Origin: Campylobacteraceae bacterium
Lineage (GTDB): Bacteria > Campylobacterota > Campylobacteria > Campylobacterales > Sulfurovaceae
Length of the DNA: 33,401 nt
Assembly (NCBI GenBank): GCA_027055805.1
Contig: JALUMR010000080.1
Location: 1-33,401 of the forward strand
Direction: 5' to 3'
The position numbers were made by a program, and so were the translations under genes. Every line of letters starts with the position of its first letter. Within the stretch, counting starts at the first letter, position 1. Under the pieces are notes generated by a model. It saw nothing but the letters and a program-made list of their open reading frames with translations, was not told the origin of the DNA and ran no database searches. Shown piece after piece: positions 20,633-29,361 of this stretch.

Positions 20633-21640
20633 ATGACAAGTAGCCAAATCTACATGACCCAAGCTCTAAAAAAGGCATGGGAGTATCAACTTAGAACTTA
20701 CCCAAACCCTGCTGTGGGAGCATTAATACTTTGTAACAATGAGATAATTGCCTTAGAAGCCCATCAAAAAGCAGGAACTTCTCATGCTGAGGTTTTGGCT
20801 TTTATTTCAGCCTATGAAACCCTTTCAGGAGAAGAGATAGGTTTTGACAGATTTGATGCTCATAAAGCTCATGAGTTTCTTTATGCCTTACCCCAAAACT
20901 TTTTTTCAGAGTCTATTGTCTATGTAACCCTTGAACCTTGTTCTCATGAGGGTAAAACTCCCTCTTGTGCATCTTTGTTAGCAGCATTAAAACCTAAAAA
21001 AGTAGTTGTTGCTACACTTGACCCGATAGAGGGGCATGATGGGGGTTTGAAACGACTTGAAGAGCAGGGGATAGAGGTTAAAGTTGGTGTTTGTGAAAAA
21101 GAGGCACTAGAGCTTTTAGAGCCATTTTTAGTTTGGCAAGAGAGAGCTTTTGTCCTGTTTAAGATAGCACAAACCTCCAATGGAAAGATTGGAGGAGGCT
21201 ACTTGACCTCTAAAGAGTCCTTAACTCATGTGCATCAGTTAAGGTCAGTCTGTTCTCAGATGATGATAGGAGGCAATACCGTTCGAGTAGATAGACCTAC
21301 ACTTGACTGTAGGTTTACGGGTGATGAGGCTCCTGATATTATTATCTATTCTAAATGGGATAACTTTGATAGGGATATTCCTCTTTTTTCTGTAGAAAAT
21401 CGTAAAGTAGAGATTACAAATATTTTAAAAGGGTTTAATAGACCATCTTTTATATTTATAGAGGGGGGAGAAGGAATGATAAATGCTTTAAAAGATAGTA
21501 TTGATTGGTTATTACAGTATCAAGCTCCTAAGTTATCTTCTCACATCTCAAATTACTCTATAGATTTAAATTTAGAATTTCTATTTCAAGATAAAAGAGG
21601 TGTTGATTTGTTATTATGGAGTAGAACACGTAAAAAGTAA
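20633..21640 (+). CDS. ribD: Riboflavin biosynthesis deaminase/reductase
   Basis: YPNPAVGALI, GTSHAEVLA, VYVTLEPCSHEGKTPSC, reductase segment MMIGGNTVRVDRPTLDCR. Confidence 0.92.
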   Translation: MTSSQIYMTQALKKAWEYQLRTYPNPAVGALILCNNEIIALEAHQKAGTSHAEVLAFISAYETLSGEEIGFDRFDAHKAHEFLYALPQNFFSESIVYVTLEPCSHEGKTPSCASLLAALKPKKVVVATLDPIEGHDGGLKRLEEQGIEVKVGVCEKEALELLEPFLVWQERAFVLFKIAQTSNGKIGGGYLTSKESLTHVHQLRSVCSQMMIGGNTVRVDRPTLDCRFTGDEAPDIIIYSKWDNFDRDIPLFSVENRKVEITNILKGFNRPSFIFIEGGEGMINALKDSIDWLLQYQAPKLSSHISNYSIDLNLEFLFQDKRGVDLLLWSRTRKK

Positions 21641-21642
21641 AT

Positions 21643-22881
21643 TTACTTTCTATTTTTTTCTGCAATCCATTGAGACATATACTTGGTACTCATCATGGAG
21701 TGATGTTTGAGCATGGCTCCTGTGAAGTTATTGAGGCGGTGTTGTTCAAGATTTTTTTCTACTTCTATTATTTTTTCTATTAATTTTTGACCTAAAATCT
21801 TACTATCATATCTGTTATTAAGAAGTTTTGTTCCGTTTTTTTGAGCTTTATGCCATGCCTCTTCATCGGTATAGAGTCTAACAGCTGCTTCTACAAAGTC
21901 ATCTACCGTATCAGCAATCATACCAGCCCAAGGCTCCTCTTGGTATTTGTGCATACCTTCTGCTCCAATAGAGCTTGTAACACTTGGTGTTTGCATTATC
22001 ATCGCATCTAAAAGTTTTCCTTTTATACCTGCTCCAAATCTAATCGGTGCTAAACAGATGCGAGAATTTTCCATAACCTCATAAGCTGAGTCTGCCCAAC
22101 CTTTAATGAAAAAACCTTTTTTAGGGTTATGTAGAGCAGTAGCTTTTGGTGGTGGGTATGAGCCGTAAATATGTAGTTCTGCTTTTGGAAGTTGCTTTCT
22201 AATTTTTGTCCAAATCTCTTGTAAATGTAAAACAACATCCCAGTTGGGAGCATGACGAAAATTACCTATGGTCATAAAGTGTTGACGTTCCAAAAATGGT
22301 TTTGTTGTTATAGGAAGTTCTTCTAAATTAACCATAAATGGAAGAGAGTGTAAAATAGAATGGTCTACTTTAAAAGTTTCAGTTAATAGTTTCATCTCAA
22401 AATTAGAGATAATAAGTGAGATGTCACAACGAAGAATAGCTGCTATTTCACGTTTAGCTAAGTCAGAAAAAAGGTCAGTTTGACTCATATTACGATGTGC
22501 TTTGTGTGCGATATACCGTGCATGGCGTAAACATTGTAAATCTTCTGTATCGAGAATTTTTAAAGCAGAGGGACAGTTTTTTTCTACTCTCCATCCAAAC
22601 TGCTCTTCCATCATGAACCTATCAAACAGAACGATGTCAGGGTCATATGTTTTGACATAATCATCAAAGCTATCACAATTTAGTAAGATTTTTTGTGTGG
22701 AGATACCTATGCTATTTAAGTTTATAGCATGTTCTGATTCCTGTGCAGGAGTTGTAAACTCAACTTTCCAGTTTTGCTTTTTAAAAAGTTTTAAAATGGA
22801 AAGTATATGGCTTCCTGCTGCTGAAGAGTTTGGTTCTGGCCAAACATACCCTATGACCAGTACTTTAGCTTTGTGCTTCAC
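21643..22881 (-). CDS. Glycosyltransferase, family 4/group 1 style
   Basis: FMTIGNFRHAPNWDVVLHLQEIW...LHIYGSYPP...KGWADSAYEVMENSRICLAPIRFGAGIKGKLLDAMIMQTPSVTSSIGAEGM is a GT-B/GT4 C-terminal pattern. Confidence 0.85.
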   Translation of the reverse strand: MKHKAKVLVIGYVWPEPNSSAAGSHILSILKLFKKQNWKVEFTTPAQESEHAINLNSIGISTQKILLNCDSFDDYVKTYDPDIVLFDRFMMEEQFGWRVEKNCPSALKILDTEDLQCLRHARYIAHKAHRNMSQTDLFSDLAKREIAAILRCDISLIISNFEMKLLTETFKVDHSILHSLPFMVNLEELPITTKPFLERQHFMTIGNFRHAPNWDVVLHLQEIWTKIRKQLPKAELHIYGSYPPPKATALHNPKKGFFIKGWADSAYEVMENSRICLAPIRFGAGIKGKLLDAMIMQTPSVTSSIGAEGMHKYQEEPWAGMIADTVDDFVEAAVRLYTDEEAWHKAQKNGTKLLNNRYDSKILGQKLIEKIIEVEKNLEQHRLNNFTGAMLKHHSMMSTKYMSQWIAEKNRK

Positions 22882-23233
22882 GAATGGCAGCTATTAGTTT
22901 TTTTTCTGTAATGGGTTTTTGTAAAAAAGAGTTTGCACCAAAACTTAGTATCTCTTTTTTACGCAAATCATTAGATGAGATAGCAATAACAGGCACATTA
23001 GAGGTTGATTTATCTCTTTTATAGAGTCTTAAAAAATCAGAACCATCCATGTTTGGCATCTCTATATCAAGTAAAATAAGCTGAAGGTCAGAGTATTCTT
23101 TACACTTTTCTAGTGCATCTTCTCCATCAACTGATTCGATTGTTTCTATTTTATAGAGTTCTTTTTTTAACAATGAGACAAGAAGTCGACGATTGATATA
23201 GTCATCATCAACGATTAAAACTTTAAAAATCAT
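22865..23233 (-). CDS. Single-domain response regulator (receiver only)
   Basis: VLIVDDDYINRRLL, LILLDIEMPNMDG, VIAISSND, LQKPI; no output domain; overlaps the glycosyltransferase start by 17 bp. Confidence 0.92.
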   Translation of the reverse strand: MIFKVLIVDDDYINRRLLVSLLKKELYKIETIESVDGEDALEKCKEYSDLQLILLDIEMPNMDGSDFLRLYKRDKSTSNVPVIAISSNDLRKKEILSFGANSFLQKPITEKKLIAAIREAQS

Positions 23234-23238
23234 TTCTA

Positions 23239-25740
23239 CTACTTTCTATATTTTTTAATAAGTTGGGCTAATTTTTCTCGCTTGATAAGACCTACATGTA
23301 ACTCTTTAACTAGAGTAGAATTAAAAGGTTTTTCATTATCTGCTTGATTTAATGAAAGCATTATCACATTCATTTGACCATGTTGCTTGTTTAAAATGTC
23401 TTTATTTGACTCTTCTAACTCTTTATCAATAAGAAGCATATCATAGTCACTCATTTGTATAAGTGTTTTTAACTCTTCCATGCTATCAACCACTTCAATT
23501 TCATAATTCATATTTGTAATGACTTTTGAAAGAATCTGTGCTTCTAAAGGGTTCTTTTTTGCGATAAGTATTTTCTTACTTGAACTTTTATTATCTTCTT
23601 CAAATTCATGAATTTTTATGACATTGGTAACTGTTGTTGCACTCTCTTTTTCAGGCTCTATAAATGATAGTTCTACTTTTTCATCCACATTATCTTCTAA
23701 AAGCATAATACCATCTTCAGTTGTGTGACTAACAGGGTCAACTTTAATCAGTTCAGGTTCATTGCTACTTTTATTCTCAGCTGCTGGTTCTAGCTCTTCA
23801 TTCTCTTTTGTTTTAGCATTTAAAAACTTTCTTAAAATAAATAGAAGTTCATTGGTTTCAATCGGTTTTGGAATATATTCATCTAATCCTTCTGCAAGAA
23901 AACGTTCTTTATCCCCTTTTAGTGCATTGGCTGTTAACGCAATAATTGGAATATGCTTTAATTGCTCTTCTATTTCATAGTTTAGAATTTCATGAGTTGC
24001 TTCAATACCATCCATAACAGGCATCTGAATATCCATAAAGATTAAATCATATGTTTCATTTTTACGTTTTTCAAAGGCTTCTAGTCCATTGTTTGCAAGG
24101 TGAACTTCTACACCATATTTTAAAAGAATTTGTTTAATAAGTTTTTGGTTAATAAAGTTATCTTCTGCAACGAGTATTTTACCTTCAAATTGAATACTAT
24201 TGAATGGTGTTGATTGATTTGTTGCTTTTTTATTGAGAACTTTCTCTTTAGGAAGAGTACTAATAGTATTTAAACCTTGTACTATTTTAGTGGGAGTAAT
24301 AGGTTTATAGAGTACTTTTGTTGTGTTTAGACCTAACTTTTCAAGTCTGTCTCGATTAGCGAAACTTGATAGTAAAACTACTTTGTGTGAATTTAATCTA
24401 TGAATGGTTTTGAGTAATGTATCATCACACGTGTCAACATCAATCCAAATACTTTGTAAATTCTTATCTAAATTACACTGTTTCAAATCAGAAGGTGTAC
24501 TAAATGGATGGTTTTTAATATGATAGTAATCTAAATATTTTGAAAGGTAAATATCTTGTTGTACAGGAATATTATAATCAAATTTACATATGGTAATATC
24601 ATTAAACTTTGAACACGTACCAAGCTCTGTACTCTCTAGTACTTCTTCAAAAAGAATAGTGAAGTAAAATGTTGTTCCTTTCTCTTTTTGGCTCTCAAGT
24701 TTAAGTTCACTATTCATTAACTCTAAAAATTTAGTAGAAATAGTAAGTCCCAGACCTGTACCACCATACTTACGAGTGATAGAAACATCAGCTTGTGTAA
24801 AGGCTGCAAAAACATTAAGTTGTTGTTCTTTGGTCATACCTACACCATTATCTTTGATAGAAAAAGAGATTTCTGTATGATTGTCTAGGGAAGAGATTTT
24901 TATGATTTCTACATTAATTTTACCACCAAAGTCTGTAAACTTAATAGCATTACTTAAAAGGTTAATAAGTACCTCTTTAATTTTAACAGAATCTCCAAGA
25001 AGTTTTTTATTAATGGCAGGGTCAAGAAAAAGATTTAAATCAATATTCTTTTCTGCTGCTCTAACACCATAGGTTTCTATGGCTGACTCAAACTCTATAA
25101 TAGGGTCAAAAATCACCATGTCAAGTTCTGTTTTGTTGCTCTCAATTTTTGAAAGGTCTAAAATATTGTTAATAATACTTAATAGGTTTTCTGAACTTTT
25201 TTCGATAATATTGGTAAATTCTATCTGCTCACTATTTAAATCAGTACTTTTTAACAACTCTGTAAAACCAACAATTCCATTTAGTGGTGTACGAATTTCA
25301 TGTGACATATTGGCTAAAAATAGTGATTTTGACGCATTGGCTTCTAGTGCTTCTATTTTATCAGATTTGGCATTCTCTATGAGTAGTTCAATAAATTTAT
25401 AACCATCTTTCATACCTCGACTACTGTTTAAATCAATATTTTTTAGTGCAGAGATACTTGGTTCATCAAAGGTACTTTCTGCTTCTACAGCAGCATTATT
25501 GAGTATTTCTTCTAAATCTTTTATACTATTGTGTAGTTCTCTGCTAGTTTTAAAACCAATAATAGCCAAAGTTATACTTAATAATATACCAAAAACAGAG
25601 ATTCCAAATATAATCTCTTTAGTGAGATTTTCACCTGCTATATATTGATTGTAACTTGTATATGCAAAATAACTTGTTATTAAAAATAGTAAAAAAATAG
25701 GTAGTGCACTAATAAGTCTTAATTTGTTTTTTAATTGCAT
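23239..25740 (-). CDS. Hybrid sensor histidine kinase (HisKA-HATPase-pseudoREC-REC-pseudoREC)
   Basis: Two N-terminal TM segments; FLANMSHEIRTPLNGI (His147), NLLSNAIKFT, GGTGLGLTIS; receiver ILVAEDNFIN...LIFMDIQMPVMDG (Asp570); flanking degenerate receiver-like regions. Confidence 0.92.
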   Translation of the reverse strand: MQLKNKLRLISALPIFLLFLITSYFAYTSYNQYIAGENLTKEIIFGISVFGILLSITLAIIGFKTSRELHNSIKDLEEILNNAAVEAESTFDEPSISALKNIDLNSSRGMKDGYKFIELLIENAKSDKIEALEANASKSLFLANMSHEIRTPLNGIVGFTELLKSTDLNSEQIEFTNIIEKSSENLLSIINNILDLSKIESNKTELDMVIFDPIIEFESAIETYGVRAAEKNIDLNLFLDPAINKKLLGDSVKIKEVLINLLSNAIKFTDFGGKINVEIIKISSLDNHTEISFSIKDNGVGMTKEQQLNVFAAFTQADVSITRKYGGTGLGLTISTKFLELMNSELKLESQKEKGTTFYFTILFEEVLESTELGTCSKFNDITICKFDYNIPVQQDIYLSKYLDYYHIKNHPFSTPSDLKQCNLDKNLQSIWIDVDTCDDTLLKTIHRLNSHKVVLLSSFANRDRLEKLGLNTTKVLYKPITPTKIVQGLNTISTLPKEKVLNKKATNQSTPFNSIQFEGKILVAEDNFINQKLIKQILLKYGVEVHLANNGLEAFEKRKNETYDLIFMDIQMPVMDGIEATHEILNYEIEEQLKHIPIIALTANALKGDKERFLAEGLDEYIPKPIETNELLFILRKFLNAKTKENEELEPAAENKSSNEPELIKVDPVSHTTEDGIMLLEDNVDEKVELSFIEPEKESATTVTNVIKIHEFEEDNKSSSKKILIAKKNPLEAQILSKVITNMNYEIEVVDSMEELKTLIQMSDYDMLLIDKELEESNKDILNKQHGQMNVIMLSLNQADNEKPFNSTLVKELHVGLIKREKLAQLIKKYRK

Positions 25741-25752
25741 TATCTACTCCTC

Positions 25753-26982
25753 CTATACTGATTTAAGTTGTTTCATATAATCTTCCAATGAAAGAAAATG
25801 ACCCCAGTACTTAGTAAAAAGAGCTTCTAATTTATCATGTTCTGTACAGTATTGAATCTCTTCTAATATATCTGCTAGTTCATTAATACGTAAATTACTC
25901 GCAGCACCTTTTAGTTTGTGTCCAAGTTCATGAATATTATCCATGTCTTTTTGTGCATAAGAGGTTAAGAGATGATCTTTATCATGATGTGCTTGTTCTA
26001 TAAAATCTTCTACAAACTCTTCTATAAGTACTACAGGAAGATTTAGCTCATCGGCAGCAGTTTGAGGGTTGTATGAAATAGGTAAAGCAGATACATTATC
26101 TAGTGTGAAAGCTTTATCTTTATCTGAAGTTTTAACTACTTTTTCTTCTTGTTTTATATCTTCTTTAATCGTACTGTTACTTACGAGGTTATCAAAGCTT
26201 AAATCATCAAATTCATCTTCTTCTATAACTTTTTTCTCTTCTTTAGTATCTTTCTCTTTTTTATAAATATCATCATTAGAGACATTGTTGAGTAAGTCAG
26301 TAAATCTTGCATTAAGAACTTCTTCTTTCTCTTCAATACTATCTTGCTCTAATAAAGTATCAAATTCTTCATCCTCATAATAGTCTTCAGGCTTTTCTAA
26401 CGTTAATAGAGCCAATTTGGTATAGTACTGATCAATAAGAGGCATACGCTCACGATGTGAAAGCTTTTTAATTTTTAGAAGCAATATATTAATATGAGGT
26501 ATTTTTAGTGTTAATGCTAAATTTGAAAGATTTTTAATAACCTTGTCATTTCCTTCTAATAGACGTTTTTCATCAATAATGGATTGATCGATAAAACTGT
26601 CAAGATAAAGTTTATAGTCATCAACTGTTAATCCTATATCTTTAGAAATTTTTTCAACATCAAGATAAATTTCTTTATAATTGACTTTGAAATCATTTAC
26701 AGGTTCTACTTGTTTAGGTGTTTTTGTAATTACTTTTTCTACAGTAATGTTTTTAAGCTCAACCAAGTAAAAATCACCAATGGTTCCATAAATTTCATGA
26801 TGAGAAAAGTCAGAGTTTATTTTTTGATTATTTTGTTCTATTACAATTTTATTGTTTTCAAACTTTATATAATCAATAATATTCCCTTCTATAAGTTGAT
26901 TAAAAGAGTCGTACCCTAAAAGCTCTATAAATGCTTCATCTGCCATTACTAGTTGTTTATTATCATTATATCCGTAATACAT
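25753..26982 (-). CDS. PAS-like/Hpt protein with C-terminal Hpt domain
   Basis: N-terminal PAS-like segment; acidic linker; C-terminal Hpt with IHELGHKLKGAASNLRI (His355). Confidence 0.8.
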   Translation of the reverse strand: MYYGYNDNKQLVMADEAFIELLGYDSFNQLIEGNIIDYIKFENNKIVIEQNNQKINSDFSHHEIYGTIGDFYLVELKNITVEKVITKTPKQVEPVNDFKVNYKEIYLDVEKISKDIGLTVDDYKLYLDSFIDQSIIDEKRLLEGNDKVIKNLSNLALTLKIPHINILLLKIKKLSHRERMPLIDQYYTKLALLTLEKPEDYYEDEEFDTLLEQDSIEEKEEVLNARFTDLLNNVSNDDIYKKEKDTKEEKKVIEEDEFDDLSFDNLVSNSTIKEDIKQEEKVVKTSDKDKAFTLDNVSALPISYNPQTAADELNLPVVLIEEFVEDFIEQAHHDKDHLLTSYAQKDMDNIHELGHKLKGAASNLRINELADILEEIQYCTEHDKLEALFTKYWGHFLSLEDYMKQLKSV

Positions 26983-27002
26983 TTTTCCCTCGCTATATTA
27001 TA

Positions 27003-27398
27003 TTAATACTGAGCATAACGCTCAATTTCTTCTTCTTTGTTAGATTTAGATGTTGGTTTATGCACAACAATAAAACCTGAGATTTCACCATTATTGTCAT
27101 ATTTGACGGTACAGTGAATATCTGACCAAAAATACATACCATCTCGACGCATATTTTTAAGTGTCGAGAACCACTGTTTAAGACGTTTTTTTGTTGACCA
27201 AAGATTCTCATAAAGTTCTTGAGGTACATCAGGATGCTTAAATATCGAATGGTCTTTACCCAAAAGTTCTTCTTTTCTAAAACCAGTAACTTGACAAAAG
27301 TTCTGATTAGCGTAAGTTATTATTCCATTCATATCAATTTCATATATTAAATTTTCAGTAAAAGTATATTCAACATCTAACGCTATAGGATGATGCAC
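27003..27398 (-). CDS. Stand-alone PAS protein (Aer/CetB-like)
   Basis: IYEIDMNGIITYANQNFCQVTGFRKEELLGKDHSIFKHPDVPQELYENLWSTKKRLKQWFSTLKNMRRDGMYFWSDIHCTVKYD, typical Aer-type PAS. Confidence 0.85.
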   Translation of the reverse strand: MHHPIALDVEYTFTENLIYEIDMNGIITYANQNFCQVTGFRKEELLGKDHSIFKHPDVPQELYENLWSTKKRLKQWFSTLKNMRRDGMYFWSDIHCTVKYDNNGEISGFIVVHKPTSKSNKEEEIERYAQY

Positions 27399-27555
27399 TC
27401 TGCTTCCTTTATGTATATTTATTAATCCGTAGGTAACTTTATTATAAAAAGACTAAGATATTTATTAAAATAAACTTATTCTTAAAATTTAATTTATTAC
27501 AATAAAGTTTTTTTACAAATTATAATATTAAATGTTTAGATAGACATTATATAGA

Positions 27556-29361
27556 TTAATATTTAACAATATCTGTTTTTATTATTTTAGCAATTTTTTC
27601 ACTACTAGCAACTGAAATTTCACTATAAGTTGCATTTTTAATGGCTTCAAAAGTTCCAAAGTAGTTTAGAAGTTTTTTAATGGTGGCTGGACCGATACCT
27701 TTTTTCTGTAAAAGAGAGTTTTGGGTGTCATCTTTTCGTTTTTTATTTTGATGGTAAGTTATGGCAAAACGATGGGCTTCATCACGTTGTCTCTGTATCC
27801 ATTGTAGGCGTTTATCTGTAGTTTTTAGTTCAAAAACTGAATGCTCAGTATAGACAATGTCTTTGGCAGCACCTTTGGCTCTATGGGCTTTTTCGTCAAG
27901 TTTCTCTTTGGCTATGGCAATGATATTTAATTCTATGTGAGCTTCATCTAAAAGTTGAACAGCAAGTCTTCTTAACGTCTCTCCTCCATCTAAAATCCAC
28001 AAGTCTGGTACTGGATTTTTATAAAAACTCTCTATTCGTCTACTTAACATCTCTTTCATCTGTCCATATTCATCTTTGGCTTTAAGTTCATAGCGTCGGT
28101 AGTCACTCTTTTGCCATTTGTTATCATTCCAAACTACCATAGCTCCTACTGTAGCTACTCCCATCATATGAGAGTTGTCAAAAGATTCAACACGATAAGG
28201 CACAATGTCTAGTTCAAAAAGTTCAGAAATTTTGGGCTCTATCTCCTCTTTATTGTCCTGTTTTAGAACTTCATGTGCATTGGTGATAGCCAGTGAAGTT
28301 AATTTTTCTTTTGAACCTTTTTTAGGATTAAGAATAGTGATTTTTTTAGAAAAACGGTCACTTAATAGTGTTGCTAATTCTGATTGGTCTTTAAATTCAT
28401 GTGCTACTACAATGGTTTTGGCTATTTGGGGAGCTTCTGTATTGTAAAACTCTAAAAGAGCTTGTGTATAGGCTTCATCTTGGTCAAAAATATCTCTACT
28501 TCTAAAGGTGGAAAAAGAGGAAGAGATAATTTTCCCTTGACGCATAAAAAGTTTGACAATTACTCCTTTCGTTTTACCATTGATAATAGCAAAAATATCC
28601 ATATCATCAAGAGATTTTAAATCAAGGTTGGAACTTATGGTTAAGGATTCTATACTCTTAATATTGTCACGTAGTTTAGCAGCCTCCTCATAGCGTTCAG
28701 CCATGGCAAGTGTCATCATTTTTTCTTTAAGCGTCTCTATAAGAATAGTACGTTTTGTTATAGATTTTTTAGCTCTTTCAATTATTTTATAGTACTCTTG
28801 TGAGCTTATTTTTCCTTCACATGGAGCCAAACATTTATCTATTTGATGAAATAGACAAGCTTTTCCTTCTCGTAGACATGATTTTTTTTGAACCAAAGGA
28901 AAGACTTCATAAAGTGTATCTAGTAGAACTTTTCCTCCATTTGGAAAAGGTCCAAAATAGGAGATTTTTTTCCCTTTTATAATCTTTCTAGTTATTTCAA
29001 AACGAGGAAAATCTTGATTTTCATCAATGTAAATATAGGGGTATGTTTTGTCATCACGAAGTAGTATATTATATTTGGGGTTCAACTGTTTTATAAGTGA
29101 GTTCTCTAAAATAAGAGCATCGGCTTCTGTAGCTACAACAATATATTCAACTTTTACAGCCTGTTCTAACATTTTAATAATACGAATACTCAACGTGTCA
29201 TTGGGACGAAACTTAGGGGCAAAACGCCAGTAACTTTTGACTCTGTTTTTGAGATTTTTTGCTTTTCCTACATAAAGTAAGCGTGAGTTTTTGTCAAAAT
29301 ATTGGTAGACACCAGCACTACTGGGTAAGTTCTGAATGGTTTTTTCTATTTCGCTATACAT
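27556..29361 (-). CDS. uvrC: Excinuclease ABC subunit C
   Basis: LPSSAGVYQYFDKNSRLLYVGKAKNLKNRVKSYW (GIY-YIG), UVR motif AMAERYEEAAKLRD, DNSHMMGV, DLWILDGG, HhH region LLQKKGIGPATIKKLLNYFG. Confidence 0.97.
   Translation of the reverse strand: MYSEIEKTIQNLPSSAGVYQYFDKNSRLLYVGKAKNLKNRVKSYWRFAPKFRPNDTLSIRIIKMLEQAVKVEYIVVATEADALILENSLIKQLNPKYNILLRDDKTYPYIYIDENQDFPRFEITRKIIKGKKISYFGPFPNGGKVLLDTLYEVFPLVQKKSCLREGKACLFHQIDKCLAPCEGKISSQEYYKIIERAKKSITKRTILIETLKEKMMTLAMAERYEEAAKLRDNIKSIESLTISSNLDLKSLDDMDIFAIINGKTKGVIVKLFMRQGKIISSSFSTFRSRDIFDQDEAYTQALLEFYNTEAPQIAKTIVVAHEFKDQSELATLLSDRFSKKITILNPKKGSKEKLTSLAITNAHEVLKQDNKEEIEPKISELFELDIVPYRVESFDNSHMMGVATVGAMVVWNDNKWQKSDYRRYELKAKDEYGQMKEMLSRRIESFYKNPVPDLWILDGGETLRRLAVQLLDEAHIELNIIAIAKEKLDEKAHRAKGAAKDIVYTEHSVFELKTTDKRLQWIQRQRDEAHRFAITYHQNKKRKDDTQNSLLQKKGIGPATIKKLLNYFGTFEAIKNATYSEISVASSEKIAKIIKTDIVKY

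What the first reader, a model, noticed from the sequence alone, without database searches (positions are those of the whole stretch)
21643..27398. Five-gene phosphorelay operon feeding into a glycosyltransferase
On the minus strand, genes with tiny gaps or overlaps run PAS protein -> PAS/Hpt protein -> hybrid kinase -> receiver-only regulator -> glycosyltransferase, the last two overlapping by 17 bp. All relay parts are present (HisKA, REC, Hpt, terminal REC), but no DNA-binding output domain. The receiver may act on a protein partner, and the translationally coupled glycosyltransferase is the obvious candidate, or the relay may feed into motility or surface glycan control.
Basis: partly seen in the sequence, partly recalled or inferred. 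Interest (0 to 1): 0.62.

Follow-up and report, generated by a model that had tools for sequence, protein, structure and literature searches.

The report
Conserved phosphorelay with stray glycosyltransferase
A chain of signalling proteins that passes a phosphate from one to the next is real and conserved in sulfur-oxidising marine bacteria, always behind the DNA-repair gene uvrC, but the sugar-transferring enzyme at its end is a laterally acquired neighbour in only three close relatives and is probably not what the chain controls.

Summary
The five genes exist as described (21643-27398, minus strand; the receiver and glycosyltransferase genes overlap by 17 nt). They are not a five-gene system. 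The relay is old: Hpt gene, hybrid kinase and receiver-only regulator, usually preceded by a single-domain PAS gene, stand in fixed order directly behind uvrC in Campylobacterales (62 loci; uvrC seen upstream in 55, kinase in 62, receiver in 55). The glycosyltransferase is an addition. In the genus it is in 4 of 34 genomes and follows the receiver in 3; a fourth species has the empty site with the same flanks (uvrC...receiver | ribD-rimP-rbfA-infB). Its homologues (57-76% identical) are mostly lone genes in marine Gammaproteobacteria, never beside the relay. Even among the three carriers its DNA history differs from the relay's. The overlap is best read as an insertion scar. The genus has no FliM and no CsrA, so flagellar and Csr outputs are excluded. 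Most likely: a redox/electron-acceptor-sensing phosphorelay (Aer/CetB-like flavin PAS; periplasmic NIT domain in relatives, deleted here) ending in a stand-alone receiver whose target is encoded elsewhere. I found no paper on this relay in the held library.

The parts
27003..27398 (-). Single-domain PAS protein of the Aer/CetB/NifL flavin type; probable cytoplasmic redox sensor of the relay
   Evidence: Pfam PAS_3/PAS_9; best PDB relatives 3ewk, Aer 8dik, NifL 2gj3; Aer H53, H58, D60, W70, W79 and N85 kept, R115 replaced by H; 12 of the relay loci lack the gene
25753..26982 (-). Hpt protein: PAS-like fold 1-83, histidine-less (dead) Hpt 105-195, disordered linker about 200-300, active-type Hpt 306-408 with His355
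   Evidence: Pfam Hpt; AlphaFold model and PDB fold matches to Hpt proteins; duplicated Hpt by profile comparison, probability 95.7; His355 invariant in 33 aligned relatives
23239..25740 (-). Membrane hybrid histidine kinase: TM hairpin, HisKA (His147), HATPase_c, degenerate receiver 383-493, active receiver (Asp570), degenerate receiver 723-831; periplasmic NIT domain deleted
22865..23233 (-). Stand-alone receiver (response regulator without output domain), Asp56; last conserved gene of the relay operon
   Evidence: Asp56 in 53 of 54, Lys106 in 53 of 54; next gene on the opposite strand in 41 of 53 loci
21643..22881 (-). GT4-type glycosyltransferase, laterally acquired neighbour; not a part of the conserved relay
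   Evidence: Pfam Glyco_trans_1_4
22865..22881 (-). 17-nt overlap of the receiver and glycosyltransferase reading frames, read as the insertion junction: the homologues' ATG start is missing and GTG inside the receiver gene is the only start in frame
27556..29361 (-). uvrC, constant upstream neighbour of the relay
   Evidence: uvrC seen upstream in 55 of 62 relay loci; most others end at a contig edge
27399..27555 (-). 157-bp gap between uvrC and the PAS gene holding a promoter-like site (TTAATA-16-TATAAT); possible relay promoter
   Evidence: Consensus match only, total number of such sites no higher than in shuffles
20633..21640 (+). ribD, convergent neighbour; right flank of the glycosyltransferase, and directly beyond the receiver at the empty site in G306

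Best explanation
Four genes form a conserved multistep phosphorelay of Campylobacterales behind uvrC; the glycosyltransferase is a recently and laterally acquired gene that landed at the 3' end of the receiver gene in one small clade. Proposed mechanism: a cytoplasmic flavin-PAS protein reports the cell's redox/respiratory state to the membrane hybrid kinase, as CetB is thought to do for CetA. In relatives the kinase also senses an anion such as nitrate or nitrite with a periplasmic NIT domain, lost in this lineage. The kinase autophosphorylates on His147 and passes the phosphate to its own receiver (Asp570). From there it goes to His355 of the Hpt protein and on to Asp56 of the stand-alone receiver. 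The phosphorylated receiver acts by protein contact on a target encoded elsewhere. Shown here: gene order and its conservation, domains, conserved phospho-acceptors, loss of NIT, separability of the glycosyltransferase, absence of FliM and CsrA. Inferred: flavin binding, PAS-kinase contact, direction of phosphate flow, unlinked target.
For: Gene order uvrC-(PAS)-Hpt-kinase-receiver across families; the Hpt gene found in every genome sampled from its own family and in 104 of 299 of the order. Phospho-acceptors conserved: HisKA His 61/65, kinase receiver Asp 65/65, regulator Asp 53/54, Hpt His invariant in 33. PAS nearest to Aer, MmoS and NifL, with Aer's flavin-contacting H53 and N85 kept (PMC9668731). 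NIT domain in relatives' kinases, up to E 8.3e-37. Glycosyltransferase separable: empty site in G306, 3 of 34 genomes of the genus with the arrangement, different neighbours in Gammaproteobacteria, no relay cluster beside it in 79 of 80 loci. Identity drop at the junction: window against G320 98.8-99.7% nt for uvrC to receiver, 94.3% for glycosyltransferase, 90.7% for ribD; G320 against G324 97.7% for the glycosyltransferase but 94.8-96.7% for Hpt, kinase and receiver. FliM 0/34 and CsrA 0/34.
Against: No biochemistry. The PAS gene is missing in 12 relay loci with uvrC directly upstream, so it is not an obligate part. In this genus the Aer residue that contacts flavin N5 (R115) is histidine in all 24 PAS proteins. 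NIT loss does not follow loss of nitrate reductase NapA: G320 and G324 have NapA without NIT. The glycosyltransferase is under purifying selection (dN/dS about 0.13-0.19) and keeps the overlap in all three carriers, so it is made and may be co-expressed with the relay.
Confidence: 0.72

Rival explanations
1. One reading: the receiver, when phosphorylated, controls the translationally coupled glycosyltransferase and thereby a surface glycan.
For: Same strand, 17-nt overlap kept in three genomes, purifying selection on the glycosyltransferase, no other output domain in the operon.
Against: Absent beside the relay in all other relatives; relay older than the acquisition; an empty site exists; discordant histories even among the carriers; homologues elsewhere work without any relay beside them.
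Confidence: 0.05
2. Weak coupling only: the glycosyltransferase was captured under the relay operon's promoter and read-through, so its expression follows the operon, but the receiver does not act on it. Compatible with the best explanation.
For: Head-to-tail overlap, no separate start or Shine-Dalgarno-like sequence before its GTG, kept in three genomes under purifying selection.
Against: No transcript data; promoter-like sites inside the operon are at chance frequency, so an internal promoter cannot be excluded.
Confidence: 0.5
3. BarA/GacS-UvrY-like global regulator: the kinase is BarA-like and the locus sits beside uvrC, as uvrY/gacA does in Gammaproteobacteria.
For: Kinase matches the BarA model over 530 residues, E 9.4e-119; constant uvrC linkage; uvrC-gacA linkage in Gammaproteobacteria is own knowledge.
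Against: Score 397.9 is far under the BarA cut-off of 890; the regulator has no HTH; CsrA is absent from all 34 genomes of the genus.
Confidence: 0.05
4. The receiver is a phosphate sink or feedback element and the real output is another, unlinked regulator with a DNA-binding or enzymatic domain fed by the same Hpt.
For: Single-domain receivers act as sinks or intermediates in known relays (own knowledge); the genus has several other receiver proteins.
Against: The receiver is the one constant last gene of the operon, with all catalytic residues kept.
Confidence: 0.25

Closest known systems
CetA/CetB bipartite energy-taxis system of Campylobacter jejuni (PMC2628428)
   Same: Stand-alone Aer-like PAS protein encoded next to a membrane signalling protein with a transmembrane hairpin
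   Different: The partner here is a hybrid histidine kinase feeding an Hpt and a receiver, not a chemoreceptor; no HAMP detected; genus without FliM
Aer PAS domain of Escherichia coli (8dik, PMC9668731)
   Same: Sequence relative; flavin-contacting His53 and Asn85 and the HPD motif are kept
   Different: Separate protein; Arg115 is His in this genus
BarA/GacS/LetS hybrid kinases
   Same: HisKA-HATPase-degenerate receiver-receiver order; neighbourhood of uvrC (for BarA's partner gene)
   Different: Hpt on a separate protein, an extra degenerate C-terminal receiver, no HTH regulator, no CsrA; below the BarA model cut-off
NIT-domain nitrate/nitrite-sensing receptors (PF08376)
   Same: Orthologous kinases in relatives carry a NIT domain between two transmembrane helices
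   Different: Domain deleted in the window's kinase; ligand not tested
GT4 glycosyltransferases of marine Gammaproteobacteria (annotated 'glycosyltransferase' in Pseudoalteromonas)
   Same: 57-76% identity over the whole protein
   Different: There a lone gene with unrelated neighbours (LacI regulator, ThrE exporter, peptidase)

Membership tests
Multistep His-Asp phosphorelay | HisKA His, HATPase motifs, receiver Asp, Hpt His and terminal receiver Asp all present and conserved | tested here: met
Multistep His-Asp phosphorelay | Phosphate actually moves kinase-receiver-Hpt-receiver | not testable with these tools
   Needs purified proteins and ATP labelling
Aer-type flavin PAS | Sequence relation to Aer and conserved flavin-contact residues | tested here: inconclusive
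   H53, H58, D60, W79 and N85 kept; R115 is H in all 24 of the genus, R in 18 of 21 other loci
CetA/CetB HAMP-PAS pair | Partner is a HAMP-containing chemoreceptor | tested here: not met
   Partner is a hybrid kinase; no HAMP hit in Pfam
BarA-UvrY-Csr system | Kinase reaches the BarA cut-off; HTH regulator; CsrA present | tested here: not met
   397.9 of 890 bits; receiver only; CsrA 0 of 34
NIT-domain nitrate-sensing kinase | Periplasmic NIT domain | tested here: not met
   Absent in window, G320 and G324; present in L114, L118, L135, L136
CheY-like flagellar output | Flagellar switch protein FliM present | tested here: not met
   0 of 34 genomes of the genus; control genomes ring
GT4 glycosyltransferase | Glycosyl transferases group 1 profile over cut-off | tested here: met
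   PF13692 62.7 bits, cut-off 27
TIGR03087 PEP-CTERM/XrtA glycosyltransferase | Reaches the curated cut-off | tested here: not met
   67.1 of 316.65 bits
Receiver-glycosyltransferase functional pair | Adjacency kept in relatives of either gene | tested here: not met
   3 of 54 relay loci; 1 of 80 glycosyltransferase loci

The most novel reading that the evidence does not exclude
An apparently undescribed, conserved uvrC-linked phosphorelay of Campylobacterales in which input modules are exchangeable (flavin PAS on its own gene, periplasmic NIT domain; each lost in several lineages) while the Hpt-kinase-receiver core is kept, and whose stand-alone receiver controls an unlinked target in FliM-less, CsrA-free bacteria: possibly a missing electron-acceptor regulator of this group.
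Probability: 0.4. Interest if true: 0.6.

Novelty: new variant of a known kind. Interest (0 to 1): 0.4.

Why it matters
It corrects a tempting guilt-by-neighbourhood inference: a tight 17-nt overlap here is best explained as an insertion scar, not functional coupling. It leaves a cleaner question. A review (PMC6682613) states that the electron-acceptor regulators known from Proteobacteria are not conserved in Campylobacterota. A relay with flavin-PAS and NIT-type inputs, kept behind uvrC across several families, is a testable candidate for part of that control, and its output is unknown.

Tried and rejected
Glycosyltransferase as output: rejected by distribution, empty site and discordant identity. 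Motility: no FliM. Csr-type output: no CsrA. NIT loss as a consequence of losing nitrate reduction: NapA is present in NIT-less G320, G324, G319, G328 and G329. NIT loss linked to glycosyltransferase gain: nine NIT-less genomes of the genus lack the glycosyltransferase behind the receiver. Plasmid or phage carriage of the glycosyltransferase: only Pseudoalteromonas replicons annotated as non-mobilizable, no phage hit. Solved relatives of the glycosyltransferase by sequence: none. Promoters: matches at chance frequency. Literature on this relay: nothing in the held library. A single origin of the NIT-less kinases inside the genus could not be rejected (AU p 0.32).

Full report
What is there. 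The five reading frames are at the coordinates given, on the minus strand, with gaps of 20, 12 and 5 nt and a 17-nt overlap between the receiver and the glycosyltransferase. Pfam names PAS, Hpt, HisKA/HATPase_c/Response_reg, Response_reg and Glyco_trans_1_4. The window is a whole contig of a 74.7% complete assembly. One contig of the same genus is a Sulfurovum MAG in the named collection (G327:C49, 9,009 bases, the same length as L008), and G324 corresponds to the 'Campylobacteraceae bacterium' contig L004 (138,724 bases).

The relay is old and has a fixed address. The Hpt protein is found in 104 of 299 genomes of the order and in every genome sampled from the window's own family. In 62 relay loci the order is uvrC, (PAS), Hpt, kinase, receiver: uvrC is seen upstream in 55 (most of the rest end at a contig edge), the kinase in 62, the receiver in 55. 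Of 53 loci where the gene after the receiver is visible, it lies on the opposite strand in 41, often Lon (identified by eye from sequence), so the receiver is normally the last gene of the operon.

The glycosyltransferase is not part of it. Two of those 53 loci, plus the window, have it behind the receiver. It was found in 4 of 34 genomes of the genus, three with this arrangement and one (G327) on a contig that does not hold the relay. In a 200-genome sample of the order the only other match is a partial 31% one. The named genome collection gives 80 homologues at 57-92%, mostly marine Gammaproteobacteria and a few Sulfurovum; only the sister MAG L004 has the relay beside it. Neighbours elsewhere differ by lineage; in Pseudoalteromonas they are a LacI-type regulator, a ThrE exporter and a peptidase. 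Campylobacterota copies lie inside the gammaproteobacterial set in a weakly supported tree, which fits lateral arrival.

The empty site. G306, same genus, has nadB-(small gene)-uvrC-PAS-Hpt-kinase-receiver, then 292 bp, then ribD-rimP-rbfA-infB, the same flanks as the window on both sides. In the window the homologues' start (MKKVLVIGYVW) is replaced by VKHKAKVLVIGYVW: the GTG inside the receiver gene is the only start codon in that frame before the conserved part, and the receiver's stop codon lies in DNA that aligns with the glycosyltransferase. The overlap therefore reads as the insertion junction. No Shine-Dalgarno-like sequence precedes the GTG (by eye), so co-translation is possible but untested.

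Different histories. Window against G320: uvrC 98.8, PAS 99.7, Hpt 99.7, kinase 99.3, receiver 99.7% nt identity, then 94.3 for the glycosyltransferase and 90.7 for ribD. G320 against G324: glycosyltransferase 97.7 but Hpt 94.9, kinase 94.8, receiver 96.7. Recombination has separated the two parts even among the carriers. The glycosyltransferase is still under purifying selection (dN/dS about 0.13-0.19), so it is a working gene.

How the relay probably works. The PAS protein is closest to flavin PAS domains (MmoS 3ewk, Aer 8dik, NifL 2gj3; that 3ewk is MmoS is own knowledge). Aer's flavin-contacting H53 and N85 (PMC9668731) and the HPD motif are kept; R115, which touches flavin N5 in Aer, is H in all 24 PAS proteins of the genus and R in 18 of 21 other loci. 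The stand-alone PAS beside a membrane hairpin protein recalls CetA/CetB of Campylobacter (PMC2628428). The kinase of relatives carries a periplasmic NIT domain between two transmembrane helices; the window, G320 and G324 have lost it, leaving a short loop. On a tree of kinase cores the NIT state changes at least three to four times. The PAS gene is likewise missing from 12 loci with uvrC directly upstream and looks decayed in L127. Inputs thus come and go while Hpt, kinase and receiver stay. The Hpt protein is a PAS-like fold, a histidine-less Hpt-like domain, a disordered linker and a true Hpt. The kinase has three receiver-like folds, the middle one with the full active site. The proposed path is His147 - Asp570 - His355 - Asp56, all strongly conserved.

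Output. No FliM and no CsrA in 34 genomes of the genus exclude a flagellar-switch target and a Csr-type cascade. The receiver's target is therefore sought among unlinked proteins; whether it is an enzyme, a kinase or another regulator cannot be said from sequence.

Novelty. All parts are known kinds. The combination (uvrC-linked, optional flavin-PAS gene, split duplicated Hpt, output-less receiver) was not found in the held papers, which cover open-licence papers only. A review states that the electron-acceptor regulators of Proteobacteria are not conserved in Campylobacterota (PMC6682613), which gives the relay its possible interest.

Noticed in passing
L173, L175, L176, L179 (G327, G326, G328, G329), start of locus: A second hybrid kinase, 40-44% identical to the relay kinase, sits directly upstream of uvrC in these genomes, so uvrC is flanked by two related kinases.
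   Followed up: no
L135, L137, L143, L144, L149, between Hpt and kinase genes: One family has an extra small ORF of about 133 aa between Hpt and kinase; in L135 it looks like a secreted Sel1/TPR-type repeat protein, a possible added periplasmic input.
   Followed up: no
window:27003-27398 and the 23 other PAS proteins of the genus: Genus-wide replacement of Aer Arg115 (flavin N5 contact) by His; may shift redox potential or mark loss of flavin.
   Followed up: partly
window 20633-29361 against L167 (G320): Sharp identity step from about 99% (uvrC to receiver) to 94% (glycosyltransferase) and 91% (ribD), a sign of recent homologous recombination between related species.
   Followed up: yes
window:20049-20585 and L167/L168 between ribD and rimP: The stretch between ribD and rimP holds different genes in the three sister genomes (an Lcl_C-domain gene in the window), suggesting an insertion-prone site around ribD.
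   Followed up: no
L127:13570-13977 (minus): Remnant that resembles a decayed PAS gene between uvrC and Hpt, in a genome whose kinase also lacks NIT.
   Followed up: partly
L026, L034, L035, L047 and other Pseudoalteromonas loci: The glycosyltransferase is a well conserved lone gene between a LacI regulator and a ThrE exporter; 134 nearly invariant positions including a conserved C-terminal tail suggest one specific, unknown substrate.
   Followed up: partly
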